A DNA stretch of 64,000 nucleotides from the NCBI RefSeq assembly GCF_030263895.1, contig NZ_CP127161.1:1612001-1676000 (forward strand), given 5' to 3'. The notes under the pieces are model-generated. The model made no database searches. It saw only the letters and a list, made by a program, of their open reading frames with translations, and was not told where the DNA came from. Below are positions 17,961 through 49,653 of the stretch, piece by piece; position 1 is the first letter of the stretch, and every line of letters begins with the position of its first letter. Position numbers and translations under genes: made by a program. The DNA comes from Proteiniborus sp. MB09-C3 (GTDB lineage Bacteria > Bacillota > Clostridia > Tissierellales > Proteiniboraceae).

Positions 17961-18018
17961 AAAACCACAGGATTGATTGATCTGTGCATAAAATATTTTG
18001 GGAATGGAGGTTAATTTA

Positions 18019-19866
18019 ATGCAATCACAGGTACTTTTATTGATAGGAGTTGGTTCCATAATGTTCTTAGTTATTGGTGGGTTGTCTTTACTTGCTCATT
18101 ATTATACCTTAAATGGAATCAAATCTAAAACAGTAGGTGATGGCCAACATGGAGTTGCTCGTTTCGCTACACAAAAGGAAATTATTAAAACATATGAGCA
18201 TATTCCTTTCAATGTATCACAATGGAGAAAGGGTAAGAATCTTCCACGTGATGAGAGTGGTAATTTGATACAGGGATTAGTGGTTGGATGTAAAGGAAAT
18301 AAAGGAGATATTGTAGGACTTGTAGATACAGGAGATGTTCACTGTCTTATGATTGGTGCAGCAGGAGTTGGTAAAACAGCCTTTTTTCTATATCCAAACC
18401 TAGAATATGCATGTGCAAGTGGGATGAGTTTTATAACCACTGATACAAAGGGAGATTTAGCTAGAAACTATGGAACGATAGCTAAAGAGAATTATGGATA
18501 TAAAGTTGCAGTTATTGATTTAAGAAATCCCACACGCAGTGATGGAAATAATCTTTTGCACTTAGTAAATAAATATATGGATGCATATCGAGAGAATAAC
18601 GATAATCTATCGGCAAGAGCTAAGGCAGAAAAATATGCAAAGATAATCTCTAAGACAATCATAAATTCAGGAGGTGACAGCTCAGCTTATGGGCAAAATG
18701 CATTCTTCTATGATGCGGCCGAAGGACTTCTGACAGCAGTTATTTTATTGGTAGCAGAATACTTGCCTCCTAGTGAAGAAGATGGAATTGTAACAGATAC
18801 AAGGCATATCATTAGTGTATTTAAATTGGTACAGGATTTAATGGCTCCAAGTAAGGTGAAAGGGAAAAGCCAGTTCCAATTATTAATGGATAAACTTCCA
18901 CCTGATCATAAAGCTAGATGGTTTGCTGGTGCTGCACTTAATTCAGCAGAGCAAGCAATGGCTTCTGTTCTTTCTACTGTACTATCAAGGCTCAATGCAT
19001 TTCTTGATTCTGAAATGGAGCAGATATTGTGTTTTGATACAACAATTGATGCGGAAACCTTCTGCTATGAAAAATCTGCAATATTTCTTATACTCCCGGA
19101 GGAAGATAATACAAAGTATTTCATGGTCAGTTTATTTTTGCAACAGTTTTATCGTGAGATGTTGACAGTAGCTGATGAAAACGGAGGCAAACTACCTAAT
19201 CGTGTGATGATATATGCAGATGAAATAGGAACAATACCCAAAATAGAATCCTTTGAAATGATGCTTAGTGCAGGGAGATCAAGAAGAATTTCTATTGTAC
19301 CAATCATTCAATCCTTTGCACAGCTTGATAAGAATTATGGGAAAGAAGGTAGTGAGATTATAACTGATAACTGTCAACTCACTATATTTGGAGGGTTTGC
19401 ACCAAATTCAGAAACAGCTCAGGTGTTATCTAAAGCACTTGGTAGTAGAACAGTTATGAGTGGAAGCATCAGCAGAGGGAAAAATGATCCCTCTCAAAGT
19501 TTACAGATGATTGAGCGACCTCTACTTACGGCAGATGAGTTAAAATCCTTGCCTAAAGGAAACTTTGTAATTATGAAAACAGGTGTACATCCAATGCAAA
19601 CAAAACTTCGATTATTTTTGGATTGGGGCATCACTTTTGACAAGCCATATGAGATGGAGGAAAAGTCCCATCGTAAGGTACGCTATGCCGACAAGCAGAC
19701 CTTAGAAGAAAATGTTATTAGTCAGTATATGACTGATGTAATAGACGAAGAAGGAACTACCGAATCCACTGCAAACAAACAAGGAGGCATACTTCATACT
19801 CCTACACATGAGCAAACTGGTGAAGGTAAAGTAGATTCGAAACGCAAATCAATACTCAGGACATAG
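18019..19866 (+). CDS. virD4: VirD4-type coupling protein
   Basis: Type IV coupling ATPase, linking the relaxosome to the secretion channel at the membrane. ATG at 18019 has GGAGG at 18006-18010; an earlier in-frame TTG is less likely. Residues about 5-27 form an N-terminal membrane segment, the Walker A motif GAAGVGKT is near residue 115, and the Walker B-like IYADEIGTIPK near residue 397. The TraG/VirD4 signature around LSAGRSRRISIVPIIQS follows. Length (615 residues) is normal for the family. Together with virB4 and the relaxase it shows an autonomous transfer system. Confidence 0.92.
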   Translation: MQSQVLLLIGVGSIMFLVIGGLSLLAHYYTLNGIKSKTVGDGQHGVARFATQKEIIKTYEHIPFNVSQWRKGKNLPRDESGNLIQGLVVGCKGNKGDIVGLVDTGDVHCLMIGAAGVGKTAFFLYPNLEYACASGMSFITTDTKGDLARNYGTIAKENYGYKVAVIDLRNPTRSDGNNLLHLVNKYMDAYRENNDNLSARAKAEKYAKIISKTIINSGGDSSAYGQNAFFYDAAEGLLTAVILLVAEYLPPSEEDGIVTDTRHIISVFKLVQDLMAPSKVKGKSQFQLLMDKLPPDHKARWFAGAALNSAEQAMASVLSTVLSRLNAFLDSEMEQILCFDTTIDAETFCYEKSAIFLILPEEDNTKYFMVSLFLQQFYREMLTVADENGGKLPNRVMIYADEIGTIPKIESFEMMLSAGRSRRISIVPIIQSFAQLDKNYGKEGSEIITDNCQLTIFGGFAPNSETAQVLSKALGSRTVMSGSISRGKNDPSQSLQMIERPLLTADELKSLPKGNFVIMKTGVHPMQTKLRLFLDWGITFDKPYEMEEKSHRKVRYADKQTLEENVISQYMTDVIDEEGTTESTANKQGGILHTPTHEQTGEGKVDSKRKSILRT

Positions 19867-20450: not shown

Positions 20451-20666
20451 ATGGCTATAAGCTATAAAAAGCTATTCCACTTGTTAATAGAAAAAGAAAT
20501 CACAAATGCGGATCTACAGAGACAAGCTGGTTTTTCCGCTAATATTATTACTCGACTTAAGCGAAACGGATATGTTTCACTGGAAACTATAGAAAGTATA
20601 TGCAGAACGCTTAATTGCAGTGTAGATGATATACTGGAGTTTATTCCAGATGAAGATAAGGAGTAA
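20451..20666 (+). CDS. XRE-family controller protein
   Basis: A 71-residue single-domain Cro/C1-type helix-turn-helix protein (NADLQRQAGFSANIITRLKR as the HTH, then LETIESICRTLNCSVDDIL). AGGAGGG precedes the ATG at 20451. It sits at the head of a restriction-modification-like cassette behind a promoter with a palindrome in its spacer, which matches the arrangement of autoregulating C proteins that time restriction after methylation. The role is inferred from layout. Confidence 0.85.
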   Translation: MAISYKKLFHLLIEKEITNADLQRQAGFSANIITRLKRNGYVSLETIESICRTLNCSVDDILEFIPDEDKE

Positions 20667-20709: not shown

Positions 20710-21663
20710 GTGAAGTCAAATATTATTGTAGATATTATAGAAGAAGATGTTGTATCATATGGGCAATCACTGCTTAATATCCTCCTCAAAGATAGAACTA
20801 CAAATCAGAACATAATCTGGGCATCAAATGATTATTCTAAATTTGGAGATTTGTATAAAGCAGAATGTGAAATTAAGCCTCTCTTAATTACAAATTCTAA
20901 TGACAAAGTTATACAACCTAGAATAACTAAAACTTATAAAAAGCAAAATATCCGGACAAGAGAAAAGGCAGAAGTTTTTACCCCTTCATGGGTATGTAAT
21001 GAACAGAATAACCTTATAGATGAACAATGGTTTGGAAGAAAAGATGTATTTAATATACAAAAAAGCAAATCTTGGAAACCAACAAATAATAAAATACCTT
21101 TTACAGATGAAAAAGGGCGAACTTGGAAAGATTATGTTGATGCAAGAAGAATCGAAATTACATGTGGTGAGGCACCGTATTTGGTAAGTCGATATGATAC
21201 CGTTACTGGAGAAACAATTGAATTAGTGTCACGTATAGGGTTACTGGATCGCAAGATGCGGGTGATAAATGAAAATCTAGAGGATGAAGATGAATGGCAA
21301 AAATGGACTGAAAGAGCCTTTCAAAGTGTATATGGATATGAATATCAAGGAGACAATCTGCTTTTAGCACGTGAGAACCTTTTATATACTTACATTGAAA
21401 ATATGAAATATAAATTTGAGCGTTCCCCAAGTTTAATAGAATTGAAGAGAATAGCCACAATTATATCTTGGAATATATGGCAAATGGATGGAATTACATT
21501 TTCAGTACCATTATGTGATATGCGGTGCTGGTTCGAACAATTAACTCTGTTTGATAACTATGGTGATATTAACAATGAAATTGAACATAAATATTGCAAG
21601 ATTAAGGATTGGCGTTCAAGGATTATTATTGAGTATAGGTCATTAGTAGGAGGGGGAAAATAA
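20710..21663 (+). CDS. Methyltransferase-like subunit (restriction subunit M type)
   Basis: About 317 residues from GTG 20710, which has AAGGAGG at 20697-20703; the frame is open upstream but overlaps the controller gene. It has the N-terminal landmarks of gamma-type N6-adenine methylases: EVFTPSWV (region X-like, about residue 88), ITCGEAPYLVSRYD (SAM-binding motif I-like, about residue 158) and GYEYQGDNLLLAREN (motif II-like). It has no NPPY/F catalytic motif. That motif occurs at the C-terminus of the next protein, whose start overlaps this stop, so the two may form one split methylase. Confidence 0.75.
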   Translation: MKSNIIVDIIEEDVVSYGQSLLNILLKDRTTNQNIIWASNDYSKFGDLYKAECEIKPLLITNSNDKVIQPRITKTYKKQNIRTREKAEVFTPSWVCNEQNNLIDEQWFGRKDVFNIQKSKSWKPTNNKIPFTDEKGRTWKDYVDARRIEITCGEAPYLVSRYDTVTGETIELVSRIGLLDRKMRVINENLEDEDEWQKWTERAFQSVYGYEYQGDNLLLARENLLYTYIENMKYKFERSPSLIELKRIATIISWNIWQMDGITFSVPLCDMRCWFEQLTLFDNYGDINNEIEHKYCKIKDWRSRIIIEYRSLVGGGK

Positions 21664-24600
21664 TGGAGAAGTTATTTACATCATCATTCGAATATAAGCT
21701 GATATATATCTTTGAAATAAGGGATGAAACTCATAAGGGACTGTTAAAAATAGGTGATACTACTATCCAAACAGAAGAGTCTATTGATAATCTTCCTCCA
21801 AATTGCAAGGCATTAAATCAAGCTGCAAAAGCTCGCATTAAAGAATATACCAATACTGCAGGTGTGTCCTTCGAACTTTTACATACAGAACTTGCCGTTC
21901 GCACTGTAAAAGATAAGGGCAATATGCCTGTTTTAAAGGCATTTAGGGATTATCATGTACATAGAGTGCTTGAGAACTCTGGAATCAAGAAAAAACAGTT
22001 AAGGGATTCTACAAGTCGTGAGTGGTTTAAAATAGATATTAAAACGGCTCTAAAAGCAATAGAAGCAGTAAAAAAAGGACAATATAATCTTTCTAATGCT
22101 ATATCGGATCAATTCGTACCTATCGTATTTCGACCAGAGCAAGACGTAGCTATTGCTAAAACACTTAAGCAGTTTAAAAGTAGCAATAGGATGTTGTGGA
22201 ATGCTAAGATGCGTTTTGGAAAGACACTCTGTGCCCTTGAAGTTGTGCGCCAATCAAAATTCAAAAAAACTATTATTATTACACATAGACCTGTTGTAGA
22301 CAGCGGTTGGTACGAGGATTTCGGTAAAATATTTCAAGGTGTGGATGGTTATATTTATGGTTCAAAGAACAGTGGTTATACGGTTGATCAATTGCTAAAA
22401 ACAGATAAGAACTTTGTGTACTTTGCATCTATGCAAGACTTGAGGGGTTCTGATTTAGTTGGTGGTAAATTTGATAAGAACAGTGCTGTGTTTGATACTA
22501 CTTGGGACTTTGTCATAGTTGATGAAGCCCATGAAGGTACAACAACAGCACTAGGTAATGATGTTATAAAGAATATTGTCAAAGAAGAGAATGGATGTGA
22601 TACAAAGTTCCTTGCACTTTCTGGCACACCTTTCAATATTCTTGGAGATTATGATGAAAATATTTATACTTGGGACTACGTTATGGAGCAGAGTCGTAAG
22701 TATGAATGGGATAGTTTGCACTTTGGTGATTCAAATCCTTATGACGAATTACCTGAACTTAAGATTTTTACATATGACCTTGGTAAACTTATATCAGATA
22801 GTATTTATGTTGAGTTAGAAGATAAAGCATTTAATTTCCGTGAATTTTTTCGTGTATGGACTGGAGATATGAAATCTGACCGCAAACCTCTCCCAACGGG
22901 AATAGAAGCAGGAAGCTTTTTCCATGAAGATGATGTCTGGAGTTTTCTTAATCTTATTACTAAAGAAGATAAGAAAAGTCAGTATCCATATGCCACAGAA
23001 GAATATCGTAACTTGTTCAAGCATTCTTTATGGATGGTTCCGGGCGTAAAAGAAGCAAAAGCCTTGAGTAAAATGATGAAAAAACATTCTATTTTTGGTA
23101 GTGGAGCATTTGACATTGTAAATGTTGCAGGGGATGGAGATGAGGAAGAAAAATCTGAAGAGGCACTTAAAAAGGTTCGTAATGCCATTAATAGTGCAGG
23201 GGAAGATGGGTATACTATTACATTATCATGTGGCAAGTTAACCACAGGGGTTACTGTGCCAGAGTGGACGGCTGTATTTATGCTTTCAGGTTCTTTTTCC
23301 ACTTCTGCTGCAAATTATCTACAGACTATATTTCGTGTACAATCACCTTGTAATAAGAATGGAAAAATAAAACGCAACTGTTATGTATTTGATTTTGCAC
23401 CAGATAGAACGCTTAAAATGGTTGCTGAGTCCGTTGCAATATCAACAAAGGCGGGAAAAACAGATGAATCTGACAGGCGCATTATAGGAGAATTCTTAAA
23501 TTATTGCCCAGTTATTGCAGTTGACGGAACAGTTATGAAAAAATATGATACAAATAGGCTATTACAACAACTGAAACGTGCCTATGCTGAACGAGCAGTT
23601 CAAAACGGATTTGATGATAATAATCTATATAATGATGAGTTACTCAAACTTAATGAAATTGATTTAGAAAAATTTAAAAAACTAAAAGGAATTGTAGGCG
23701 CATCAAAAACAGCTCCTAAGTCTAATGATATAGATATCAATAATCAAGGATTTACTGATGAAGAATATGAAGAAGTCAAACGTATTGAGAAAAAACCGAA
23801 AAGAGAGCGTACTCCAGAAGAAGAAGAAAAGTTAAAGGAAATAGCCGAAAAAAATAAACAGGCTGCAAATGCACGGTCTATTCTTCGCAGTATTTCTATC
23901 CGTATGCCTTTACTTATTTATGGAGCAGATATAACTATAGATGAAGATATTACGATGGAAAAAATTGTTGATATAGTTGATGATTCTTCTTGGGATGAGT
24001 TTATGCCAAATGGTGTAAGCAAGGAAATATTTAAGGGGTTTATTAAATATTATGATCCTGAAATATTTGTAGCTGCAGGAAGAAAAATCCGTAATACCGT
24101 AAAAGGCGCAGATGAACTTCCGCCGACAGAGCGTGTACAAAAAATTGCACAAATCTTCTCTTGTTTTAAGAATCCAGATAAAGAAACAGTCTTAACCCCG
24201 TGGAGGGTAGTAAATATGCATATGAGCGACTGTTTGGGAGGCTATGACTTCTATGACGCAGAACACAATACGATAATTGAAGAGCCGAGATATATTGACC
24301 ATGGCAAAGTAACAGAAGATACTCTTGGCAACAAAGATGCTAAGATACTTGAAATTAATTCTAAGACAGGCCTTTATCCGCTCTATGTGGCATATAGCAT
24401 TTTCCGTAGAAAGTGTGTATCTTATTCAGAATATGAACTGACCGTTGAACAGGAAGGAAAGCTTTGGAATGAAACAGTTCAGCAGAATGTGTTTGTTATT
24501 TGTAAAACGCCTATGGCAAAATCTATTACAAAGCGTACCTTAGTCGGATTTAAAGATGTTCCTGTGAACTCACATTATTTTGACGATCTCATTAATATGA

Positions 24601-25661
24601 TGAAGAATAAGCCTAAACAATTTATTAATCGTGTTAAAAAACCAAGCTATTGGAAGATAGAGGGAGTGAAAGAAATGAAATTTGATGCAGTAGTAGGTAA
24701 TCCACCTTATCAAATTAGTGATGGTGGTTATGGTGATAGTGCTAAACCAATATATAATCTTTTTATAGAACAGGCAAAGGCACTTAATCCTAAGCACCTA
24801 TCTATGATTATTCCTGCAAGATGGTATTCGGGCGGAAAGGGATTAGACTCTTTTAGAAAAGAGATGTTAAATGATGACCAACTAAATGTTATTCATGACT
24901 TTCCAGAAACATCTGATTGTTTTTCAAATGTTAATATCCGTGGTGGTGTATGCTATTTTTTATGGTCTAAAGATAAGCATGATGATTGTACTATTTTTAA
25001 TCATCAAAACAATACAGTGGTAAGTGAATTAAAGCGACCTTTATTAGAAAAAGATGCAGAAACATTTATTAGGTACAATAAAGCAATAACTATATTAAGG
25101 AAGGTTCAAACTTTTGGGGAACCAACTATGGATAAGTTAGTAAGTTCAAGAAAACCTTTTGGTTTAGCCACAAACTTCACTGGTTTTTCTCTTTCAAAAA
25201 CTGAAGAGAAAAATATATACCTACATCGATTTGGGGAGAACGGATATATTTCTTTAAGTCAAGTTCCCAAAAACACAGAGTGGATTTACGATACAAAGAT
25301 ATTTGTACCATATGCAAGTCCTGGGGCGGATGATTACCCACATCTTGTATTATCTAAACCAATTGTTGCAGGGGTCAATACAGCTTGTACGGAAACGTAT
25401 TTAGTTATAGGTCCATTCGAGAATGAATTAACTGCTAAAAATGTTGCTGAATATATGAGAACAAAATTTTTCCGTTTTATGCTTATACTATTAAAGAGCG
25501 CACAACATATTACCCAAAAAGTATATGGTTTAGTTCCACAGCAAGATTTTACAAAAAAATGGAATGATGATATTTTATATGCTAAGTATGATATCACTGA
25601 CGATGAAATCACATTTATAAACACTCTTGTGAAAGATGTTGATTGGAATTTGAACGAGTAA
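21663..25661 (+). CDS. GIY-YIG-like, DEAD helicase and Eco57I-type methylase fusion
   Basis: A 1332-residue protein of several domains. The N-terminus (KLIYIFEIRD, GLLKIGDTT) resembles a T5orf172/GIY-YIG nuclease domain. A helicase core follows with AKMRFGKT (Walker A, about residue 181) and DEAH (about 287). A Lys/Glu-rich coiled region spans about 700-745. The C-terminus has NPPY (about residue 1013), motif IV of N6-adenine methylases, followed by a likely target-recognition region. Nuclease, ATPase and methylase elements in one chain suggest a restriction enzyme; motif I seems to be on the preceding subunit. Start overlaps the previous gene's stop. Confidence 0.82.
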   Translation: MEKLFTSSFEYKLIYIFEIRDETHKGLLKIGDTTIQTEESIDNLPPNCKALNQAAKARIKEYTNTAGVSFELLHTELAVRTVKDKGNMPVLKAFRDYHVHRVLENSGIKKKQLRDSTSREWFKIDIKTALKAIEAVKKGQYNLSNAISDQFVPIVFRPEQDVAIAKTLKQFKSSNRMLWNAKMRFGKTLCALEVVRQSKFKKTIIITHRPVVDSGWYEDFGKIFQGVDGYIYGSKNSGYTVDQLLKTDKNFVYFASMQDLRGSDLVGGKFDKNSAVFDTTWDFVIVDEAHEGTTTALGNDVIKNIVKEENGCDTKFLALSGTPFNILGDYDENIYTWDYVMEQSRKYEWDSLHFGDSNPYDELPELKIFTYDLGKLISDSIYVELEDKAFNFREFFRVWTGDMKSDRKPLPTGIEAGSFFHEDDVWSFLNLITKEDKKSQYPYATEEYRNLFKHSLWMVPGVKEAKALSKMMKKHSIFGSGAFDIVNVAGDGDEEEKSEEALKKVRNAINSAGEDGYTITLSCGKLTTGVTVPEWTAVFMLSGSFSTSAANYLQTIFRVQSPCNKNGKIKRNCYVFDFAPDRTLKMVAESVAISTKAGKTDESDRRIIGEFLNYCPVIAVDGTVMKKYDTNRLLQQLKRAYAERAVQNGFDDNNLYNDELLKLNEIDLEKFKKLKGIVGASKTAPKSNDIDINNQGFTDEEYEEVKRIEKKPKRERTPEEEEKLKEIAEKNKQAANARSILRSISIRMPLLIYGADITIDEDITMEKIVDIVDDSSWDEFMPNGVSKEIFKGFIKYYDPEIFVAAGRKIRNTVKGADELPPTERVQKIAQIFSCFKNPDKETVLTPWRVVNMHMSDCLGGYDFYDAEHNTIIEEPRYIDHGKVTEDTLGNKDAKILEINSKTGLYPLYVAYSIFRRKCVSYSEYELTVEQEGKLWNETVQQNVFVICKTPMAKSITKRTLVGFKDVPVNSHYFDDLINMMKNKPKQFINRVKKPSYWKIEGVKEMKFDAVVGNPPYQISDGGYGDSAKPIYNLFIEQAKALNPKHLSMIIPARWYSGGKGLDSFRKEMLNDDQLNVIHDFPETSDCFSNVNIRGGVCYFLWSKDKHDDCTIFNHQNNTVVSELKRPLLEKDAETFIRYNKAITILRKVQTFGEPTMDKLVSSRKPFGLATNFTGFSLSKTEEKNIYLHRFGENGYISLSQVPKNTEWIYDTKIFVPYASPGADDYPHLVLSKPIVAGVNTACTETYLVIGPFENELTAKNVAEYMRTKFFRFMLILLKSAQHITQKVYGLVPQQDFTKKWNDDILYAKYDITDDEITFINTLVKDVDWNLNE

Positions 25662-25751
25662 TTAATTTCTAAATAGATATACAAAGCTAGCTATTTGAAT
25701 TATATTGAAAGATAATAAAGGTCATGTATTAAAAGTAAATTACAAAATACT

Positions 25752-25790
25752 ATCCCTGTTCCAAAATGAATTATTGGGACAGGGATTTTT
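25752..25790 (+). terminator. Terminator after the large restriction gene
   Basis: ATCCCTGTTCCAA (25752-25764) pairs with TTGGGACAGGGAT (25774-25786) with one G-T pair, followed by TTTTT. It lies before the most likely start of the next gene. Confidence 0.8.
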
Positions 25791-25806
25791 AGAAAGGAAT
25801 TACAAG

Positions 25807-27570
25807 ATGTCAATCATTGAGCATAATCTTTTACCAAAGCAAAAGTCTAGAAAAAGCAACTTAAAAGTTAAGGTTGATTTATATGCTTATGCTACTGAAC
25901 TATATAATGAACTGTATTCTTTGGGAATCATTGATCGTATTAGTAGTATTCCCCAACTTGGTGTAATTAAGGTCCAAAAAAGTTTGAAGAAATCAAGATA
26001 TGATTACACTATTCTGCAATTGTATTTTCATCAATTAATAAAAAAAGAATTACAACCAACGTTGAAGTATACATATAATAATCCTGTAAAGGCAAAGGAA
26101 TTTGGTGAAAATATAAACTGTTTAGCTAAAAATGAAAGATTGACCGTAGGTGATATTTTACAGATACTATCGCTCGTTTATAGTATTGGACATTTTTATA
26201 ATACATTTACTGCATCGAGAGCTATTGTTATGCTTGCAAATGAAGACAATGCATTTTATAAAAAACTGGTCAACAATTCGCAAACTGAGCGTTTCCAGAA
26301 TACTGTGAAAAAAATTATCACAGAGCGTAATTATCAAAGGTTCCATCTTTTAAATTCTTTACTTGTACTGGAAAGATGTAATCAAAACAAGATATCTGTG
26401 CTATTGGCACAAGAAATTTTATATGCGTACATAAATAAAGATACAATTCCAATTGATAGCAAACTACATTATGTATTTGAGATTTTTCGCAACGTGAGGA
26501 GTGTTTCGTATATAGCATATGATTTACAAATAGCTAATACTCCTTTTACAATTGACTTATGGAATGATGATGCGATATTATTGCTGTTTCGAGAGCTTTT
26601 ATCAAATTATAATGATCAACAACCTGCTCATTATCTGATTAACTCAATCAGCAAATTACTTGATGATTCTGTCTATAACGAAAATTCCAGTGCAATATGT
26701 TATTATATAATTTCTAGAAAGATGGTTTCTTCTTTAAAAAGCAATAGAGATTTATATAAGATGGATTACTATATGGATTTATGGTGTAATACAGAAAGTA
26801 TTTTAAATATACAATATCGTCAATCCCGAGATTATTCAAATGAAGCCATTTTAAAATTAACATTTGATGCTATCGATAAGCAATTGTCGCAAGAATTATT
26901 AGATGAATTGGAGCATACTAATCATGTTAGGATTGGGTATTATGATCGACATTCAGGTGAAAGGACTGTTCTTGTATCGATAAAGAAAACCTGTACTAAT
27001 AAGCCTATCGTTGCGTTACGTATATTAAAATCAGTGATTAACATAATAAAAAATGTATCTGTTCACCAATCAAGCGATGTGAGATATCTTTTGGCTAGTA
27101 AGTTTTTTATCTTTTATTTATTTTTAGAGAATAGCATCGTAATAGAACCAACTATTGATAAAGATATTTGTGTTCTATGTACACGGGGAAGAAATAGTCG
27201 AATAACAGAAATAAAAAAATTGCTTGAGGCAGGTGGGGGAACAGAGGATGAACAACATGAAGTGAATTTTCTTGTAAATTGTTTGGAAATGGACAAAAAA
27301 AACGATACAACCATAACAATACCAGCTAGTATTTTAGTATATCGACAGGATTCTCCTGGAAAGAAGTTATGTGAGTTTGACGGAATGATTATCCATCCAA
27401 ACCGTAAATCAAGTCAGGTTATTCTAATGGAGGCAAAAAACACATCTACAACACCATCCTATGGTAAGAAATGTTTATGTGAAAAGTTAGATAAAATAGG
27501 GTATGTGTACAATAAGGATAGTATTGAAATAAAAGATTATGATGCACATTTGAGTTTGTCTGTTTATTGA
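25807..27570 (+). CDS. Putative PD-(D/E)XK nuclease, R-M cassette partner
   Basis: About 587 residues from ATG 25807; the frame is open back to a TTG at 25705, but a terminator lies in between, so the later start is preferred. Most of the protein is helical and unrecognised. Near the C-terminus EFDGMIIHP (about residue 522) and ILMEAKN (about 540) give the D...E-x-K pattern of PD-(D/E)XK nucleases. It could be the nuclease of the cassette or a separate defence gene. No homologue recognised by eye over the first 500 residues. Confidence 0.6.
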   Translation: MSIIEHNLLPKQKSRKSNLKVKVDLYAYATELYNELYSLGIIDRISSIPQLGVIKVQKSLKKSRYDYTILQLYFHQLIKKELQPTLKYTYNNPVKAKEFGENINCLAKNERLTVGDILQILSLVYSIGHFYNTFTASRAIVMLANEDNAFYKKLVNNSQTERFQNTVKKIITERNYQRFHLLNSLLVLERCNQNKISVLLAQEILYAYINKDTIPIDSKLHYVFEIFRNVRSVSYIAYDLQIANTPFTIDLWNDDAILLLFRELLSNYNDQQPAHYLINSISKLLDDSVYNENSSAICYYIISRKMVSSLKSNRDLYKMDYYMDLWCNTESILNIQYRQSRDYSNEAILKLTFDAIDKQLSQELLDELEHTNHVRIGYYDRHSGERTVLVSIKKTCTNKPIVALRILKSVINIIKNVSVHQSSDVRYLLASKFFIFYLFLENSIVIEPTIDKDICVLCTRGRNSRITEIKKLLEAGGGTEDEQHEVNFLVNCLEMDKKNDTTITIPASILVYRQDSPGKKLCEFDGMIIHPNRKSSQVILMEAKNTSTTPSYGKKCLCEKLDKIGYVYNKDSIEIKDYDAHLSLSVY

Positions 27571-31328: not shown

Positions 31329-32918
31329 ATGGCAAAGAAAGTAAGAAAAATAGAACCTGTAAAGCAAAAGGTTATTTTAGAATTACAACCTAAAAAACGA
31401 GTTTGTGCCTACTGCAGAGTAAGTACTGATTCAAGAGAACAACAGAATTCCTTTTCTGCACAAGTAGAATATTACAAGACTTTTATCGGAAAAAGAGATG
31501 ACTGGGAATACACAGGAATCTACGCTGATGAAGCCAAAAGTGGTACGCAAGTAAAAAAACGTGATGAATTTCTACGGATGATAAAAGACTGTGAAGACGG
31601 CAAAATTGATATGATCATTACAAAATCCGTCACAAGGTTTGCTAGAAATACAGTAGACAGTATTGAGGCTATCAGAAAGCTAAAAGCACTTGGTATCGGG
31701 GTATATTTTGAGAAAGAACATATTAATACCCTATCAGAAAAAAGTGAGCAGATGATTACCATACTAAGCTCCCTTGCACAAGGAGAGGCAGAAAGCATCT
31801 CCACTAATAACAAATGGGCAGTTAAAAAGAGATTTCAAGATGGAACATTTAAGCTTAGTGATCCTGCTTATGGATATACCAAGGATGAAGATGGAAATCT
31901 CATAATAAAAGAAGATGAAGCAAAGATTGTCCGTAGAATTTTTCATGAATATCTAAATGGCAAAGGCTCGTATATAATAGCAAGGTATTTAAATGACGAT
32001 AATGTCCCAACCATACGCTCAGCAGAAGAATGGCAGGACAGTGTAGTAAAAGAAATCTTACAAAATTCCATCTACGAGGGAGACTTATTATTACAAAAGA
32101 CATATACAACTGAGGTACTTCCCTTTGAAAGAAAATCAAATAAAGGGGAACTGCCTCAGTATTTTATTGAAAACAATCACGAACCCATTATTACAAGAAA
32201 AGAAGGGCAGATGGTCCGAGAAATTTATGAATATCGAAGAAATCAAATGGGAGTAGATGATAGTGGAAAATACCAAAACAGATATGAATTTAGCAGCAAA
32301 ATCATCTGCAAGGAATGTGGTAGCACCTTTAGGAGACAAAAGATTTATATCGGTAAACCGTATGAAAAAATTCAGTGGTGCTGTGTCCAGCATATAAGGA
32401 ATATAAGTAAATGCAGCATGAAAGCTGTAAGGGAGGATATTATAAAAGAAACCTTCCTAACCATGTGGAATAAACTTATAAGTAATTATACAGATATCCT
32501 TTATCCACTACTTGAATCCTTGAAGAATTTAAGAACGGATCATGAGCAGGAAGAAGAAATTAAAAAACTAAATAATAGAATTATGGAATTAACAGAGCAG
32601 AGTCATATCCTTAGTAGAGTCGTATCGAAAGGGTATATTGACTCTGCTATTTTTATAGAAAGACAAAATGCTCTGACTGTAGAACTTGAAGCTATTAAGA
32701 AAATGAGGAATCAATGCCTTGATAATAACGGTTATGAAAAAGAAATCATAGGAACAGCAAGGCTACTAGAAATCATAAGGTATAACCCAGAGATTATAGA
32801 AGAGTATGACGAAAACCTATTTCTCCATACAGTGGAAAATATTATTATCGGTGAAAATTATGAGATTACCTTCAAGCTAATTAATAATCTGGAGCTGACA
32901 GAGTATTATGGAAAGTGA
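31329..32918 (+). CDS. Large serine recombinase 1
   Basis: A 529-residue resolvase/invertase-type recombinase with AAAGGAGG before ATG 31329. The catalytic Ser is residue 32 in YCRVSTD; the N-terminal domain also shows KSVTRFARNTVD. The central recombinase domain (EAKIVRRIFHEYLNGKGS) and a zinc ribbon (CKECGSTFRR ... C) are followed by a coiled-coil segment near 400-450. Such enzymes integrate and excise elements in one step. It overlaps the following gene and starts a three-gene recombinase set. Confidence 0.92.
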   Translation: MAKKVRKIEPVKQKVILELQPKKRVCAYCRVSTDSREQQNSFSAQVEYYKTFIGKRDDWEYTGIYADEAKSGTQVKKRDEFLRMIKDCEDGKIDMIITKSVTRFARNTVDSIEAIRKLKALGIGVYFEKEHINTLSEKSEQMITILSSLAQGEAESISTNNKWAVKKRFQDGTFKLSDPAYGYTKDEDGNLIIKEDEAKIVRRIFHEYLNGKGSYIIARYLNDDNVPTIRSAEEWQDSVVKEILQNSIYEGDLLLQKTYTTEVLPFERKSNKGELPQYFIENNHEPIITRKEGQMVREIYEYRRNQMGVDDSGKYQNRYEFSSKIICKECGSTFRRQKIYIGKPYEKIQWCCVQHIRNISKCSMKAVREDIIKETFLTMWNKLISNYTDILYPLLESLKNLRTDHEQEEEIKKLNNRIMELTEQSHILSRVVSKGYIDSAIFIERQNALTVELEAIKKMRNQCLDNNGYEKEIIGTARLLEIIRYNPEIIEEYDENLFLHTVENIIIGENYEITFKLINNLELTEYYGK

Positions 32919-43081: not shown

Positions 43082-43693
43082 GTGTGGTTTATTAAAATTG
43101 TAAAACTAGGAGATATATCGAGTATTACAACAGGTCAAGTAATTAAAAGAAAAGAAGCTCGACCAGGTGATGTGGATGCAATTCAATATCGTATTCTTAC
43201 TTTAAAGAGCTTTGATGAAGACGGTTTTCTAGTGAAAGAAGAAATTGATTCCTTTAAAGCAAGTGAAGAAATTGAAAGTAAATATATTACTTCAAAAGGT
43301 GATATTGTTGTTCGACTCAGTATGCCTTTTACATCAATTACAATAGATGAAGAAAGTGAAGGGATATTGATACCATCTCTTTTCGTAGCAATAAGAGTTA
43401 ATTGTAATGATATTTTACCATCTTATTTAAGCTTGTATCTCAATAGCAATAAAATGAAGAAGCAATATATTAAAGAAGCAAGAGGTTCAGCAATTCAAAT
43501 ACTTAAAACATCTGCTTTCAAGGAATTTGAGATTATGATACCGGATATGAGTATACAGGAACAAGCTGTGACTCTTAATGAATTGCTGATGAGAGAAAAA
43601 AGATTACTTCAATTATTAATTAAAGAAAACAATAAAAGAAATCAAATCATATTTGATAATATGATTACTGGAGGTTTAAATCATGGAGATTAA
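43082..43693 (+). CDS. hsdS: Half-size type I specificity (S) protein
   Basis: About 200 residues with one target-recognition domain and one conserved helical region (ending KRNQIIFDNMITGGL), against two of each in a full S subunit. The frame opens at GTG 43082, but that codon overlaps AGGAGG (43077-43082), so true initiation may be at ATT 43091 (KIVKLGDISS). Half S proteins can dimerise to a symmetric specificity unit. It precedes hsdM, with 11 bases of overlap, in an operon that also carries a full-length S gene. Confidence 0.75.
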   Translation: MWFIKIVKLGDISSITTGQVIKRKEARPGDVDAIQYRILTLKSFDEDGFLVKEEIDSFKASEEIESKYITSKGDIVVRLSMPFTSITIDEESEGILIPSLFVAIRVNCNDILPSYLSLYLNSNKMKKQYIKEARGSAIQILKTSAFKEFEIMIPDMSIQEQAVTLNELLMREKRLLQLLIKENNKRNQIIFDNMITGGLNHGD

Positions 43694-45212
43694 AGTGCTA
43701 ACTCAGGAAGAAATAAATGGAACACTATGGAGAGCGTGTGATACATTTAGAGGTAAAATAGATTCAGCTATCTATAAGGACTACATTTTAGTTATGCTCT
43801 TTATAAAGTACGTTAGTGATATATATAAAGAACGTAGGCAAGAAATGATGGAAAAGTATAATAATGATGTAGAAATGGTTGAAAGACAAATGCGTTATGA
43901 GAGATTTGTTTTGAATGAAAGATCTACATTTGATTATATTTATGATAAAAGAAACCAGCCAAACATTGGTGAAATCATTAATATAGCCTTAGAGCAAGTG
44001 GAAGAAGAGAACAAGACAAAGTTAAGAGGTGTGTTTAAAAATATAGACTTTAATTCAGAAGCTGTTCTTGGTAGTACAAAAGAGCGAAATACAATGCTGA
44101 AAAATTTACTTGAGGACTTTAAAGACCTTGACCTTAGACCATCAAGGCTCAAAGGTGATGATATTATAGGAAACGCCTATGAATATTTGATAGGACATTT
44201 TGCTTCAGATGCTGGAAAAAAGGGTGGAGAGTTCTTTACCCCGGCTGAGGTTTCAGAGCTTTTAGCAAGATTAGTAAAGCCTCAAGAAAATGATAGAATC
44301 TATGACCCTACTTGTGGCTCTGGATCATTATTGATTAAAGCATTTAATAAAGTTCCTAATGGGAAAGCTCAAATCTATGGACAAGAAAGAAACGGTCAAA
44401 CGCATTCACTTTGTCGTATGAATATGTTCTTGCATAATATTGATGATGCGAAAATCGAATGGGGTGATACATTAGCTAATCCGAAGCATTTAGAAAACGA
44501 TAAGTTGATGAAATTTCAAGTTGTTGTAGCAAATCCTCCCTTCTCCCTTGATAAATGGGCGTCAGGCTTTGCAGGGGAGGGTAATGATAAGAATTTCAAT
44601 ATGGAAGCATCACTAGATCCATATAATCGCTTTTCTTGGGGAGTACCACCAAAATCAAAAGGAGATTATGCGTTCGTTCTTCATATGCTTCATTCATTAG
44701 CGGAAGGTGGAAGGATGGGTGTCGTATTGCCACATGGTGTATTATTTAGAGGAGCTAGTGAAGGAAAGATTAGGAAGAAAATTATCGATATGAATCTTTT
44801 AGATGCTGTGATTGGACTTCCTGCAAATCTATTCTACGGTACTGGTATTCCTGCATGTATCTTAGTGTTTAAGCAGAACAGGGATAGAAAAGATATTTTA
44901 TTTATAGATGCATCTGGTGATGAGTACTATGATAAAGGTAAAAATCAGAACAAACTACGCGAAGAAGATATTCAGCGTATTATTGACGCTTACGAAAAAT
45001 ATGAAAATATTGAAAAGTTTGCATATGTAGCATCAATAGATGAAGTAAAAGAGAACGATTATAACCTTAACATACCAAGGTATGTTGATACTTTTGAAGA
45101 AGAAGAATTAGTGGATATAGAAAAGGTTGCCAAGAGCATAGCAGACATCAAGGAAGAATTAGCTGAAGTGGAAGCACAGTTAGCTAAGTATCTTCACGAA
45201 CTTGGTTTTTAA
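43683..45212 (+). CDS. hsdM: Type I restriction-modification methylase subunit HsdM
   Basis: A 509-residue N6-adenine methyltransferase. The N-terminal helical HsdM domain is followed by KKGGEFFTPAEVSELL, the SAM-binding motif DPTCGSGSL (about residue 209) and the catalytic NPPF (about 284). Length is normal. It methylates the host recognition site together with S, and is needed for restriction with R. ATG 43683 overlaps the preceding S-like gene; the full S gene follows after 12 bases. Confidence 0.95.
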   Translation: MEIKVLTQEEINGTLWRACDTFRGKIDSAIYKDYILVMLFIKYVSDIYKERRQEMMEKYNNDVEMVERQMRYERFVLNERSTFDYIYDKRNQPNIGEIINIALEQVEEENKTKLRGVFKNIDFNSEAVLGSTKERNTMLKNLLEDFKDLDLRPSRLKGDDIIGNAYEYLIGHFASDAGKKGGEFFTPAEVSELLARLVKPQENDRIYDPTCGSGSLLIKAFNKVPNGKAQIYGQERNGQTHSLCRMNMFLHNIDDAKIEWGDTLANPKHLENDKLMKFQVVVANPPFSLDKWASGFAGEGNDKNFNMEASLDPYNRFSWGVPPKSKGDYAFVLHMLHSLAEGGRMGVVLPHGVLFRGASEGKIRKKIIDMNLLDAVIGLPANLFYGTGIPACILVFKQNRDRKDILFIDASGDEYYDKGKNQNKLREEDIQRIIDAYEKYENIEKFAYVASIDEVKENDYNLNIPRYVDTFEEEELVDIEKVAKSIADIKEELAEVEAQLAKYLHELGF

Positions 45213-45224
45213 GGGGGAAATAGC

Positions 45225-46493
45225 GTGAGAGATTATTTAACAAACTATCAAATGATATTACGTGGAGATACTCCTAAAGGTTTTATAAAAGATGATTTCT
45301 GGATTATACCATCTGATTGGGAAAAAACTAAGATGAAAGATATTTTGGAAGAAAGAAAAGAGTATACAACGGATCAAGATACTTACCCATTATTTAGTTT
45401 AACAATTGAAAAAGGGGTTGTAGAAAAAACTGACAGATACGAAAGACAGTATTTGGTAACTAAAGATGGTGATAATTATAAAGTAGTATATGAAAATGAT
45501 TTTGTTTATAATCCAATGAATATTAGATTTGGTGCTGTAGCATTGCATAAGTTAAGATATCCAGTATCTGTTTCAGCATATTATAATACGTTCTATATAA
45601 AAAACGGTTATAATCCCAGATTTATCGAATATTTTTTACAGTCATTTAGAATGTTACACTTTTATAACAATTATGCAGAAGGATCATTAATTGAAAAAAG
45701 GAGACTTCATTATAGTGTGCTTTTGGAGTATAGTTTTAGCTTCCCTCCAATATTTGAGCAAAATAGAATTATTGAAATTCTTTCAACGTGGGACAAAGCT
45801 ATCGAATTGAAAGAAAAGCTAATCGATGAAAAGAAAAAACAAAAGGCGGGGCTGATGCAAAAATTACTTACTGGAAATGTGAGATTTACTGGATTTAATG
45901 ATGCATGGGAAGAAGTGAAGTTTGGCAAGGTATTCAAGTTTTTAAATAAAGAACGTGTTAGTGAGCCGCAGAATTATAAGTTGCTAACTGTAAAACTCCA
46001 TTTAAAAGGTATTGAAGCAACTGAAAAATATCCAAATGACACAAAGAATGGTAGGCCATATTATTTGAGAGAACCAAATGAAATATTAATTGGACGCCAG
46101 AATTATCATAACGGTGGAATAGGAATTGTACCAAGTAATATGAAAAATTACATTGCATCAAATGCAATAAGTAGTTTAACAACAATTAAAGGTGATTTAA
46201 TGTTTTTATTTTACTATATTTCAAATGTTGACTTTTATAAAAGGGTCGGACATATGATAGGTGGTACAGGACAAAAGGAAATATCTGAAACAACTATGAA
46301 AAATCTGGTTTTACGTATTCCTAAATCATTAGAGGAGCAGAAAAAAATTGGAGAAGTTCTTAAAACAGCCGATAATGAAATAGATTTATTAGAAAAAGAA
46401 CTAGAAAGTCTAAAGCAACAAAAGAAAGGCTTAATGCAACTTCTATTAACAGGCATAATAAGAGTGAATACCCAAGAAAATGAAAAGAGGTGA
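45225..46493 (+). CDS. hsdS: Type I specificity subunit HsdS
   Basis: A 422-residue S protein with two target-recognition domains and two conserved helical spacers (KKQKAGLMQKLLTG near 210 and LKQQKKGLMQLLLTG near 400). It determines the bipartite DNA sequence recognised by the complex. GTG start at 45225 after AGGGGGAAA. The stop overlaps the region used as ribosome site by hsdR. Confidence 0.93.
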   Translation: MRDYLTNYQMILRGDTPKGFIKDDFWIIPSDWEKTKMKDILEERKEYTTDQDTYPLFSLTIEKGVVEKTDRYERQYLVTKDGDNYKVVYENDFVYNPMNIRFGAVALHKLRYPVSVSAYYNTFYIKNGYNPRFIEYFLQSFRMLHFYNNYAEGSLIEKRRLHYSVLLEYSFSFPPIFEQNRIIEILSTWDKAIELKEKLIDEKKKQKAGLMQKLLTGNVRFTGFNDAWEEVKFGKVFKFLNKERVSEPQNYKLLTVKLHLKGIEATEKYPNDTKNGRPYYLREPNEILIGRQNYHNGGIGIVPSNMKNYIASNAISSLTTIKGDLMFLFYYISNVDFYKRVGHMIGGTGQKEISETTMKNLVLRIPKSLEEQKKIGEVLKTADNEIDLLEKELESLKQQKKGLMQLLLTGIIRVNTQENEKR

Positions 46494-46497
46494 TACT

Positions 46498-49400
46498 GTG
46501 CGTAGAGCGGAAGCATACGATGAAATGAACATATCTCAAATCCCTGCTTTGGAGGTATTAAATAAAATAGGGTATACCATCATTTCGCCCGAAAAAGCAG
46601 AGCAGATGCGAGGGAATCTGTATAATGTTGTTCTTAAAGATATTTTGTACGAACGATTAACAGCCATTAATAGCTTTGATTTTAAGGGTTGCACATATAA
46701 GTTTTCAGAAAAGAATATTCAGCAGGCAATACTTGATATTGAAGAAGCGTTAACAGATGGTTTAATTAAAACCAATGAGAAGATTTATGACTCATTAATT
46801 TTAGGCCGGAGCTATCCAGAAAGTCTTTCTGAAATGGATGGTACGAAGTCCTTTAATCTGAACTATATTGATTGGGAAAATCCTGAGAACAATGTTTTCC
46901 ATGTGGTGGAAGAATTTTCGGTGGAACGAGAGGATGGACAAGGTACTGTACGTCCTGACATTGTTACTTTTATTAACGGCATTCCATTTGGGGTGATTGA
47001 ATGTAAGAAAGCAAGTATCTCTATCTCTCAGGGAATTAGCCAAATGCTTAGAAATCAGGGAAAAGAATATATTCCACAGCTATTCAAATTTGTTCAGATT
47101 GTCATGGTTACAAACAAGAATGAAACCCAGTATGCCACTACTGGAACACCTAAAAAGTTTTGGTCATTATGGAAAGAAGATAAGGAGTCTATTGAGTATA
47201 AGTGGTTTGAAGAAACACTAGCAGAGACTGTTACTTGTAGAATACCAACGGTGCAGGATAAAAATATTATTTCCCTGTTTCATCCAAAAAGAGTTATAGA
47301 AATTATACGTTTTTTCACATTGTATGATAAAAATATAAAAAAGATAGCAAGATACCAACAGTATTTCGCTATCAAAGAAATCATTAGAACCATTGTAGAA
47401 ACCGATAGGAATGGTAACCGCCAATCAGGTGTTATTTGGCATACTCAAGGTTCAGGTAAGTCCCTAACTATGGTGATGCTTTCAAGGTACATTTTATCTC
47501 AGTTTGCTGATATTCATCCCCAGGTGTTGGTCATTACAGACCGAATCGAACTAGATAGCCAGATACATCAAACCTTTAATCATTCGAGACTGAGAGCCGA
47601 AAGAGCCATAAGCGGGAGGCATCTTGTAGAGCTGATTAACAATAACGGAGCAGATATTATTACATCTTTGGTACATAAGTTTGATACTGCTTCAAAGCAT
47701 CAGAAACCTGTAAAGTCAAAAAATATATTTGTATTAATTGATGAATCTCATAGGACCCAATATGGAGAACTAAATATCAAAATGAAGAAAGTATTCCCGA
47801 ATGCCTGTTATTTAGGGTTTACAGGTACACCTTTGATGAAAAAAGATAAGAGTACCATGAAGAAGTTCGGTGGACGTATGATTCACAAGTACACTATTAA
47901 AGATGGTGTTGAAGATGGTGCCATTGTGCCACTGCTCTACGAAGGAAGACTTGTTGAACAGACAGTAAATCGGAATGCTATTGATAAGCGTATTGAAATG
48001 ATTACGAGGAATTTGGCTGAGAAGCAAGCAGAAGAACTTAAAAAGAAGTGGAGTAAATTTGAAGCAATTGCTTCATCAGAACAGCGTATTCGTTTGATTG
48101 CAGATGATATCTACGTACATTATACAAAATTTTATAAAGATACCTTTGCAAAAGCAATGCTAGCCACAGCATCAAAATTTGATGCCATTCGTTACAAAGA
48201 GTCCTTTGATGAATATGGAGATTTAAAAACAGCTATTGTTATTTCACCGCCAGATCAACGGGAAGGGTATGACGAGGTTGATGAAGAACCAAAAGATCGT
48301 GTTCTCAAATTTTGGAATAAGATGATGGAAGCCTACAGTGATCCACAAAAATATGAAGACCACATCAAGAGTGAATTTATTGATGGTGATGAATTAGAAA
48401 TTTTGATTGTAGTCGATAAGCTTTTAACTGGTTTTGACGCTCCTAGGGCATCTATTCTCTATGTTGATAAACCGATGAAAGAGCATACTTTGTTGCAGGC
48501 TATAGCACGTGTGAACAGGCTCTATGAAGGAAAGGATTTTGGGTTAATAGTAGATTATAGAGGACTTATTCAAGAACTGGATTCAGCTATGAGAACCTAT
48601 TCAGGTGCGGGTCTTGAAAACTTTGATGGAAAAGATCTTGAAGGTGCACTAGTTGATGTCATTAGTATAGTAGGAAAACTAAGAGAATCCTATTCAAATG
48701 TTGTGGCCATATTCAAAGGAATCAAAAACAAACAGGATAAGGAAGAGTACGAACTGTTGCTAGGTGATGAAGCCCTTCGAAATGACTTCTATAATCAGTT
48801 AAGTAACTTCGGAAAATACTTAGGTATAGCTCTTGAGTCAGAGCATGTCTATAATGCCATAGGTGAAGATGATATCAAGCTTTATAAACGTGAGTTTAAG
48901 TTTTATCAAGAACTTAGAGCTTCTGTAAAGCTTAGATATTCTGACACCATTGATCATAAAGAGTATGAGGCTAAGATGAGAAATCTGATGGATACCTATA
49001 TTGCTGCGGAAGATATCATTCAGATAACGGCACCAGTGGATATCCTGAATGAAAAAGAGTTCGAAGATGAGTTGATGCGTTTGGGTTCGCCAAGAGCTAA
49101 AGCAGATGCAATTCGTACAAGAATGACAAAACGCATCAGTGAAAAGTGGGATGAGAATCCAGCTTATTATAAGAAATTCTCCGAACGTATTGAAGAAATC
49201 ATAGAGCAGTATAAGGAGAAAAGAATCTCTGAATTAGAATACCTAGAAAAAATGCGAAATGTTATGAATGATTTTAGAAAGGGGTATTCAGGTACAACTT
49301 ACCCAGAGAAAATCAAACATAATATCCATGCTCAAGCCTTTTATGGTGTGGTTAAAGAAGTGCTTGAAGATGAAAGGTATTATGAAGCAGGAGTTACAGA

Positions 49401-49653
49401 GTTAGTGGCAGAAGATGGCCCTATCTACAACTATGAAGGTATTTTAGCCGATATTGCAATGGAAGTTGACGTGATTATTGAAAGGCATTGTAAGGTGGAT
49501 TGGCACGATAATCCAGATGTTCATAAGAAAATTTCTCAGGAGATAGATGAACTTTTGTATCTAGTCAAGAAAAAGCATTTTCCTAAAATGACCTTTGATC
49601 AGATAGATACAATGATTGAAAATATTAAAACTGTGGCCCTAAGAAGGTACTAG
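46498..49653 (+). CDS. hsdR: Type I restriction subunit HsdR
   Basis: A protein of about 1051 residues from GTG 46498, which has AGAGGTG in front; an in-frame ATG at 46480 lies inside hsdS. The N-terminal nuclease domain has RPDIVTF and VIECKK (about residue 167; D...E-x-K). The translocase motor shows GSGKS (Walker A, about 316), DESH (about 415) and GFTGTPLM. HsdR moves DNA and cuts at a distance from unmethylated sites. Length and domain order are normal. Confidence 0.95.
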   Translation: MRRAEAYDEMNISQIPALEVLNKIGYTIISPEKAEQMRGNLYNVVLKDILYERLTAINSFDFKGCTYKFSEKNIQQAILDIEEALTDGLIKTNEKIYDSLILGRSYPESLSEMDGTKSFNLNYIDWENPENNVFHVVEEFSVEREDGQGTVRPDIVTFINGIPFGVIECKKASISISQGISQMLRNQGKEYIPQLFKFVQIVMVTNKNETQYATTGTPKKFWSLWKEDKESIEYKWFEETLAETVTCRIPTVQDKNIISLFHPKRVIEIIRFFTLYDKNIKKIARYQQYFAIKEIIRTIVETDRNGNRQSGVIWHTQGSGKSLTMVMLSRYILSQFADIHPQVLVITDRIELDSQIHQTFNHSRLRAERAISGRHLVELINNNGADIITSLVHKFDTASKHQKPVKSKNIFVLIDESHRTQYGELNIKMKKVFPNACYLGFTGTPLMKKDKSTMKKFGGRMIHKYTIKDGVEDGAIVPLLYEGRLVEQTVNRNAIDKRIEMITRNLAEKQAEELKKKWSKFEAIASSEQRIRLIADDIYVHYTKFYKDTFAKAMLATASKFDAIRYKESFDEYGDLKTAIVISPPDQREGYDEVDEEPKDRVLKFWNKMMEAYSDPQKYEDHIKSEFIDGDELEILIVVDKLLTGFDAPRASILYVDKPMKEHTLLQAIARVNRLYEGKDFGLIVDYRGLIQELDSAMRTYSGAGLENFDGKDLEGALVDVISIVGKLRESYSNVVAIFKGIKNKQDKEEYELLLGDEALRNDFYNQLSNFGKYLGIALESEHVYNAIGEDDIKLYKREFKFYQELRASVKLRYSDTIDHKEYEAKMRNLMDTYIAAEDIIQITAPVDILNEKEFEDELMRLGSPRAKADAIRTRMTKRISEKWDENPAYYKKFSERIEEIIEQYKEKRISELEYLEKMRNVMNDFRKGYSGTTYPEKIKHNIHAQAFYGVVKEVLEDERYYEAGVTELVAEDGPIYNYEGILADIAMEVDVIIERHCKVDWHDNPDVHKKISQEIDELLYLVKKKHFPKMTFDQIDTMIENIKTVALRRY

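What the first reader, a model, noticed from the sequence alone, without database searches (positions are those of the whole stretch)
20710..25661. Restriction enzyme with a methylase split over two proteins
The SAM-binding motif I-like ITCGEAPYLVSRYD and the region-X-like EVFTPSWV are on a 317-residue protein, while the catalytic NPPY is at the C-terminus of a 1332-residue protein that also has a GIY-YIG-like N-terminus and a DEAD helicase. Genes overlap. If the two halves build one active site, this is an unusual restriction-modification design, possibly a separate class.
Basis: partly seen in the sequence, partly recalled or inferred. Interest (0 to 1): 0.72.

Follow-up and report, generated by a model that had tools for sequence, protein, structure and literature searches.

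The report
Restriction system with a split methylase
Two overlapping bacterial genes encode a phage-defence enzyme whose DNA-methylating site is shared between two proteins; the design belongs to a little-described but already named family (DrdVI-like "split methylases"), and the new detail is that the large protein also carries a worn-out copy of the missing half.

Summary
The 317-aa protein (20710-21663) carries methylase motifs X, I, II and III and no catalytic motif. The 1332-aa protein (21663-25661) carries a GIY-YIG domain, an SF2 helicase and, from residue 1013, NPPY plus a target-recognition part. Relatives show the same two methylase halves as one ~650-aa chain, as separate genes, and in phages without the nuclease/helicase. 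AlphaFold2 folds a natural fusion confidently as one CamA/TaqI-like methylase. So the two halves very probably make one N6-adenine methylase.

It is not a new class. REBASE authors already describe "split methylase" systems: DrdVI (M1-2.DrdVI, GCAGCC, cloned) and MaeIV (GCACY, cloned). The window's NPPY half is 44% identical to M2.DrdVI and its helicase 33% identical to DrdVI. The window is a variant: M2 is fused to the nuclease-helicase, and M1 has a non-canonical motif I (CGEAPY).

In all 52 family copies examined, the first G of GxG is lysine, and none has the motif II acid; the small subunits keep both motifs. It also folds with NPPY in silico, so which half partners NPPY, and when, is open.

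The parts
20451..20666 (+). 71-aa Cro/C1-type HTH regulator (likely controller protein of the system)
   Evidence: Pfam HTH_26 E 4.9e-19; an HTH gene also sits just upstream of the small subunit in phage PTm1 and an E. faecium plasmid
20710..21663 (+). Small subunit (M1 / 'A'), 317 aa: SAM-binding N-half of a gamma-class N6-adenine methylase
   Evidence: PADLOC MTase_II PDLC03390 E 5.2e-119; 27-sequence alignment; profile match to a canonical single-chain methylase E 4.8e-16
20968..20991 (+). Motif X, AEVFTPSW
   Evidence: A, E, V, T, P and W invariant in the 27-sequence alignment
21154..21183 (+). Motif I, EITCGEAPYL, aligned with EPSAGEGSFL of a canonical relative
21331..21378 (+). Motif II, YGYEYQGDNLLLAREN
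21472..21492 (+). Motif III, NIWQMDG
21663..25661 (+). Large subunit, 1332 aa: GIY-YIG nuclease + SF2 helicase + pseudo N-half + catalytic/recognition half of the methylase (R fused to M2)
21702..22070 (+). T5orf172 / GIY-YIG nuclease domain (aa 14-136)
   Evidence: Pfam PF10544, above its cut-off
22083..23762 (+). DEAD/ResIII SF2 helicase (aa ~141-700); 33% identical to the DrdVI helicase
   Evidence: Pfam PF04851 E 3.6e-13; BLAST E 6e-70 to DrdVI R
24168..24674 (+). Pseudo N-half of a methylase (aa 836-1004): X LTPWRVV, motif I* EINSKTG with K901 in place of the first Gly, motif II* VFVICKT without the acid
   Evidence: K in 52 of 52 family copies, G in 17 of 17 ordinary HsdM-type controls; folds with the NPPY half
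24675..25658 (+). Catalytic + target-recognition half (M2 core, aa 1005-1332), NPPY at 24699-24710; 44% identical to M2.DrdVI
   Evidence: PDLC03375 MTase_II E 9.4e-62; BLAST E 6.6e-99 to M2.DrdVI; swapped as a unit between close relatives

Best explanation
This is an ATP-dependent restriction-modification system of the DrdVI-like 'split methylase' family. The small protein (M1) holds the SAM-binding half of an N6-adenine methylase (motifs X, I, II, III). The last ~330 residues of the large protein hold the catalytic half (NPPY) and the target-recognition part. The two halves meet at the strand 1/strand 4 border of one Rossmann fold and together methylate adenine at an asymmetric site. At unmethylated sites the SF2 helicase of the large protein translocates and its GIY-YIG domain cuts. 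The large protein's own N-half is a decayed copy (lysine in the SAM loop, no motif II acid) that belongs to the restriction side. Shown by sequence comparison and models: the split, the fusions, the decay. Inferred: complex formation in this organism, adenine as target (from DrdVI/MaeIV), translocation and cleavage.
For: Natural fusions of the two halves in one 591-728-aa chain. Three-gene versions with the halves split between motifs III and IV. A canonical bridge (L063: GEVFTP, EPSAGEGSFL, YGIE, QGDTL, GNPPY in one chain) that ties the small protein's motifs to a normal methylase. Phage PTm1 keeps the small subunit and the NPPY half, and phage FNU4 a fusion, with no nuclease/helicase gene detected nearby. 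AlphaFold2 of a natural fusion: pLDDT 88.8, pTM 0.82, matching CamA with SAH or sinefungin over residues 61-633 (Z about 20, 409-411 residues, rmsd 6.4-6.8). Homology to DrdVI, whose M1-2 genes were cloned and matched to GCAGCC m6A (PMC6430315); M1-M2.MaeIV gave GCACY m6A (PMC10113651). SAM motifs intact in the small subunits, degenerate in the large ones. In 199 related genomes small subunit (16) and nuclease/helicase (17) share 14 genomes.
Against: No complex could be predicted here. The large protein's pseudo-half plus NPPY half also fold confidently as a complete methylase (pLDDT 88.0, pTM 0.84, CamA Z 21.1), so fold prediction does not decide which N-half sits on NPPY. The window's small subunit has no direct BLAST match to M1.DrdVI; the link runs through bridging sequences. 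No activity has been measured for the window's own proteins.
Confidence: 0.83

Rival explanations
1. The large protein alone is the methylase: it binds SAM through EINSKTG, and the small protein is an accessory or regulatory homologue.
For: X, I-like and NPPY occur in order in the large protein; Pfam Eco57I covers it end to end; AlphaFold2 folds that region as a full CamA-like methylase.
Against: Lysine replaces the first Gly of GxG in 52 of 52 copies, against G in 17 of 17 ordinary controls, and the motif II acid is absent in all 52. When the nuclease/helicase protein is separate, it ends after this pseudo-half and the NPPY half is on another protein, often fused to the small subunit. Phages that lack the nuclease/helicase keep the small subunit.
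Confidence: 0.07
2. Partner exchange: the NPPY/recognition half pairs either with the SAM-loaded small subunit (modification) or with the lysine-bearing pseudo-half of the nuclease/helicase protein (restriction or site readout).
For: Both pairings give confident complete folds; the pseudo-half is kept on the nuclease/helicase protein or on M2 in every intact locus with a nuclease/helicase examined; its lysine is as invariant as motif X.
Against: No direct evidence for exchange; in natural fusions of the small subunit with the NPPY half the exchange would have to displace a covalently linked half.
Confidence: 0.15
3. The locus is a decayed, inactive system on a mobile element.
For: Broken relatives exist: a truncated copy in a genome of the same genus (L086), frameshifted copies (L061, L089), an IS-interrupted one (L056).
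Against: Both window genes are full length with all motifs intact and a good ribosome-binding site.
Confidence: 0.06

Closest known systems
DrdVI (Deinococcus wulumuqiensis 479, plasmid pDrdVI; M1-2.DrdVI, GCAGCC, m6A, listed as Type IIG)
   Same: M1 with X, I, II, III and no NPPY; M2 with a lysine-bearing pseudo-half and NPPY; GIY-YIG + helicase protein; NPPY half 43.6% and helicase 32.7% identical to the window (PMC6430315)
   Different: Three separate genes; M1.DrdVI has canonical EPACGSGNFL. In the window M2 is fused to the nuclease-helicase and M1 has EITCGEAPY plus extra invariant segments (SRYD, RIG.LDRK).
MaeIV (Methanococcus aeolicus; M1-M2.MaeIV, GCACY, m6A)
   Different: Archaeal; sequence not compared here
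Plasmid systems of Lactococcus lactis CV56 (pCV56A) and Enterococcus faecium, annotated 'N-6 DNA methylase' / 'restriction endonuclease' + 'Eco57I restriction-modification methylase'
   Same: Small subunit plus a nuclease-helicase-pseudo-half-NPPY fusion of ~1400-1450 aa, the window's architecture
   Different: Lactococcus CV56 and one E. faecium type have a canonical M1 motif I; the E. faecium K195-6b type has the CGEGPY form
Type ISP enzymes LlaGI / LlaBIII
   Same: Nuclease, SF2 translocase, coupler, methylase and recognition part in one chain; the methylase fold matches (Z 16.5-17.4)
   Different: One polypeptide with its own methylase and a different nuclease (from general knowledge); the window's large protein lacks intact SAM motifs
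DnmA-YeeB-YeeC (B. subtilis; Vibrio crassostreae)
   Same: Adenine methylase + SF2 helicase + T5orf172/GIY-YIG gene cluster (PMC9973331)
   Different: Methylase is one MmeI-like chain; helicase and nuclease are separate genes
M.AquI and M.EcoHK31I
   Same: Natural methylases made of two polypeptides (PMC3404938)
   Different: Cytosine-5 methylases split at a different place, without a decayed second copy of the half

Membership tests
DrdVI-like split-methylase R-M systems | Small M1 with SAM motifs X, I, II (III) and no NPPY | tested here: met
   motif I is a variant (CGEAPY)
DrdVI-like split-methylase R-M systems | NPPY + recognition half on another polypeptide, homologous to M2.DrdVI | tested here: met
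   43.6% identity, E 6.6e-99
DrdVI-like split-methylase R-M systems | Translocase fused to a GIY-YIG endonuclease | tested here: met
   Pfam T5orf172 + ResIII; helicase 32.7% identical to DrdVI R, E 6e-70
DrdVI-like split-methylase R-M systems | Direct sequence homology of the small subunit to M1.DrdVI | tested here: inconclusive
   No direct BLAST hit; linked through Lactococcus M1 (E 2e-5) and the canonical L063 chain (hhalign E 4.8e-16)
DrdVI-like split-methylase R-M systems | m6A methylation needing both M1 and M2 | not testable with these tools
   Published statements cover M1-2.DrdVI and M1-M2.MaeIV cloned together (PMC6430315, PMC10113651); single-subunit controls were not found
Type ISP (LlaGI/LlaBIII) | Single chain with a complete methylase (intact SAM motif) | tested here: not met
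   SAM motif of the large chain is EINSKTG and the motif II acid is lost
Type ISP (LlaGI/LlaBIII) | Mrr/PD-(D/E)XK nuclease at the N-terminus | tested here: not met
   N-terminal domain is T5orf172/GIY-YIG
Classical single-chain Eco57I-type IIG | Restriction and complete methylase in one polypeptide | tested here: not met
   SAM-binding half is on the small protein
Split C5 methylases (M.AquI, M.EcoHK31I) | Cytosine-5 methylase motifs | tested here: not met
   NPPY / Eco57I domain
DnmA-YeeB-YeeC | Single-chain MmeI-like methylase with separate helicase and T5orf172 genes | tested here: not met
   Methylase in two proteins, helicase and nuclease fused; homology to DnmA itself was not tested

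The most novel reading that the evidence does not exclude
The catalytic/recognition half swaps partners inside one Rossmann fold: with the SAM-loaded small subunit it methylates, with the lysine-bearing pseudo-half on the nuclease/helicase protein it reads the site and licenses translocation and cleavage. Modification and restriction would then be mutually exclusive states set by which N-half is docked.
Probability: 0.15. Interest if true: 0.8.

Novelty: new variant of a known kind. Interest (0 to 1): 0.45.

Why it matters
Split adenine methylases of the DrdVI type appear in print only in short passages of methylome papers; I found no mechanism or structure (the library searched holds open-licence papers only). 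The comparison here explains the design: an intact SAM half on a small subunit, a decayed copy with an invariant lysine beside the catalytic half or on the nuclease/helicase protein, and a catalytic/recognition half exchanged as a cassette. That gives direct tests of how restriction and modification are coupled, and a signature (KxG in motif I, no motif II acid) by which such proteins can be told from ordinary methylases.

Tried and rejected
Sequence searches of PDB found no relative for either protein; profile A2 gave only sub-threshold matches, two of them to methylases in the right register (LlaBIII, DrdV). Literature searches for 'split methyltransferase' plus NPPY, for GIY-YIG + type ISP, and for 'encoded by two genes' found no description of this design; the prior art came from the plasmid name pDrdVI. 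BceSIV was checked and not pursued. Phylum-wide search with the PADLOC model matched only 6 of 398 genomes, three of them only weakly. The methionine at the start of the NPPY half in 22 of 26 nuclease/helicase fusions looked like a relic start codon, but M2.DrdVI has it too, so it may be structural.

Full report
WHAT IS THERE. The window holds a 71-aa HTH gene (20451-20666), a small gene (GTG 20710, stop 21663, 317 aa) and a large gene (ATG 21663, stop 25661, 1332 aa) that overlap by one base. The small protein has no Pfam or NCBIfam match of note but matches the PADLOC 'type II methyltransferase' model PDLC03390 at E 5e-119. The large protein matches T5orf172 (GIY-YIG), ResIII, and Eco57I in Pfam, and the PADLOC models REase_MTase_IIG (PDLC03626) and MTase_II (PDLC03375). 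The system sits in what looks like an integrative conjugative element (by reading of neighbouring ORFs).

MOTIFS. In 27 small subunits, motif X (AEV.TP.W), motif I (E..CGE.P), motif II (Y..E.QGD....AR) and motif III (N..QM.G) are invariant or nearly so, together with lineage-specific SRYD and RIG.LDRK. A bridging relative, L063/L052, is a 591-aa single-chain methylase with textbook motifs (GEVFTP, EPSAGEGSFL, YGIEFLEDNLAVAR, QGDTL, GNPPY). Its N-half aligns with the small subunit (hhalign E 4.8e-16), and its C-half with the NPPY part of the large protein. So the small protein is the SAM half of a gamma-class adenine methylase, cut off between motifs III and IV.

ARCHITECTURES. Across the fetched loci the same parts are arranged in different ways: small; nuclease-helicase-pseudo-half-NPPY (window type); small-NPPY fused; nuclease-helicase-pseudo-half; all three separate; and canonical M1; pseudo-half-NPPY (M2); nuclease-helicase (DrdVI type). 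L088 pairs a canonical small subunit (LEPSAGEGIFL) with a nuclease-helicase-pseudo-half-NPPY fusion. Tenacibaculum phage PTm1 has small subunit and NPPY half only, and Fusobacterium phage FNU4 a fusion only; no nuclease/helicase gene was detected in either stretch. In 199 related genomes, small subunit (16 genomes) and nuclease/helicase (17) co-occur in 14; the exceptions include a cut contig, a weak hit, a truncated copy, a pseudogene and a system with the canonical small subunit.

THE SECOND, DECAYED HALF. Before NPPY the large protein has LTPWRVV (X) and EINSKTGLYPL (I-like), then VFVICKT where motif II should be. In nuclease/helicase proteins without NPPY, the chain ends with this segment. 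In the first 27-sequence alignment the only invariant columns are T, P and V of motif X and K and G of motif I. Over 52 distinct copies, including M2.DrdVI (DPCTKSGVF), the residue at the first G of GxG is K in all, and none has an acid at the motif II position. The small subunits have G there in every case that could be read, and the acid as well. In 17 ordinary HsdM-type methylases from related genomes it is G in all. So exactly one N-half in each system keeps the SAM motifs, and it is the small subunit (or, in the fused forms, its equivalent).

STRUCTURE. AlphaFold2 of a natural small-NPPY fusion (L021, 649 aa, 42 rows): pLDDT 88.8, pTM 0.82. The best solved matches are CamA with SAH or sinefungin (Z 20.1-20.4, 409-411 residues aligned, rmsd 6.4-6.8), then MmeI, BrxX, LlaGI, TaqI; the CamA alignment spans residues 61-633, that is both halves. 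The window's pseudo-half plus NPPY half also folds well (pLDDT 88.0, pTM 0.84; CamA Z 21.1). Hence the fold does not tell which N-half is docked on NPPY in the cell; motif integrity and gene arrangements do the arguing. A model of the two chains together could not be made.

CASSETTE EXCHANGE. Between the window and L019 the large proteins are 89% identical in the 80 residues before the NPPY core and 30% identical in the 80 residues after GNPPYQ. With L046 the drop is from 84% to 59% and then below 40% further on. The catalytic/recognition half is therefore exchanged as a unit, as expected if it sets the target sequence.

WHAT IS KNOWN. DrdVI of Deinococcus wulumuqiensis 479 is listed as M1-2.DrdVI, GCAGCC, 6mA, IIG, with methylase genes cloned and motifs matched in E. 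coli (PMC6430315). [quoted passage not shown] The pDrdVI genes read here show the same parts; the window's NPPY half is 43.6% identical to M2.DrdVI (E 6.6e-99) and its helicase 32.7% identical (E 6e-70). PADLOC already holds models that match the small subunit and the large protein, so such proteins are in the libraries. The window system is thus a variant of a known kind: M2 fused to the nuclease-helicase, and a variant SAM motif.

MECHANISM AND LIMITS. Most likely: the small subunit plus the NPPY half methylate adenine at an asymmetric site; unmethylated sites trigger helicase translocation and GIY-YIG cleavage. The pseudo-half probably belongs to the restriction side, since phages that keep only modification genes lack it. 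Its exact job is unknown; partner exchange is the boldest reading not excluded. Complex formation, target, and cleavage are inferred from DrdVI/MaeIV and from domain content, not measured.

Noticed in passing
window 25705-27570 (+): 621-aa protein of unknown family 43 nt downstream of the large subunit. It is present next to the same system in L046 (80% identical) and a fragment follows the truncated copy in L086. By eye its C-terminus (CEFDGMIIHPNRKSSQVILMEAKN) resembles a PD-(D/E)XK nuclease motif; no significant Pfam, NCBIfam or PADLOC match.
   Followed up: partly
L129 10831-14127: Beyond the nuclease/helicase-NPPY fusion lie two more NPPY/recognition halves without a nuclease/helicase, one inverted, with a 33-bp inverted repeat (97%) at the GNPPYQ-coding start: looks like silent, invertible specificity cassettes.
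   Followed up: partly
L133, L135, L138, L139, L143, L145 and others: Viral contigs with a lone small subunit and no detectable NPPY half in the record held (records may be fragments). Could be decoys, anti-restriction factors, or partners of host halves. In L141's contig a divergent NPPY half lies about 8 kb away.
   Followed up: partly
window 43683-49653 (+): A second R-M locus, apparently Type I: an N6_Mtase (HsdM-like, PF02384 E 2e-112) followed by 422-aa and 1057-aa ORFs of the size of HsdS and HsdR.
   Followed up: no
L044: A MAG contig labelled Dysgonamonadaceae (Bacteroidota) is 98-100% identical to the window's system: recent transfer or mis-binning.
   Followed up: no
L086 8187-11048: A genome of the same genus carries an N-terminally truncated copy of the large protein without any small subunit nearby: a relic.
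   Followed up: partly
L056 6908-13780 (B. longum plasmid): An IS256 transposase gene lies between the small subunit and the NPPY half, in which no NPPY is found: a broken system on a plasmid.
   Followed up: no
window 17998-19866 and 31329-32918: A type IV coupling-protein-like ATPase and a large serine recombinase (by sequence reading) flank the region, consistent with an integrative conjugative element carrying the R-M genes as cargo.
   Followed up: no
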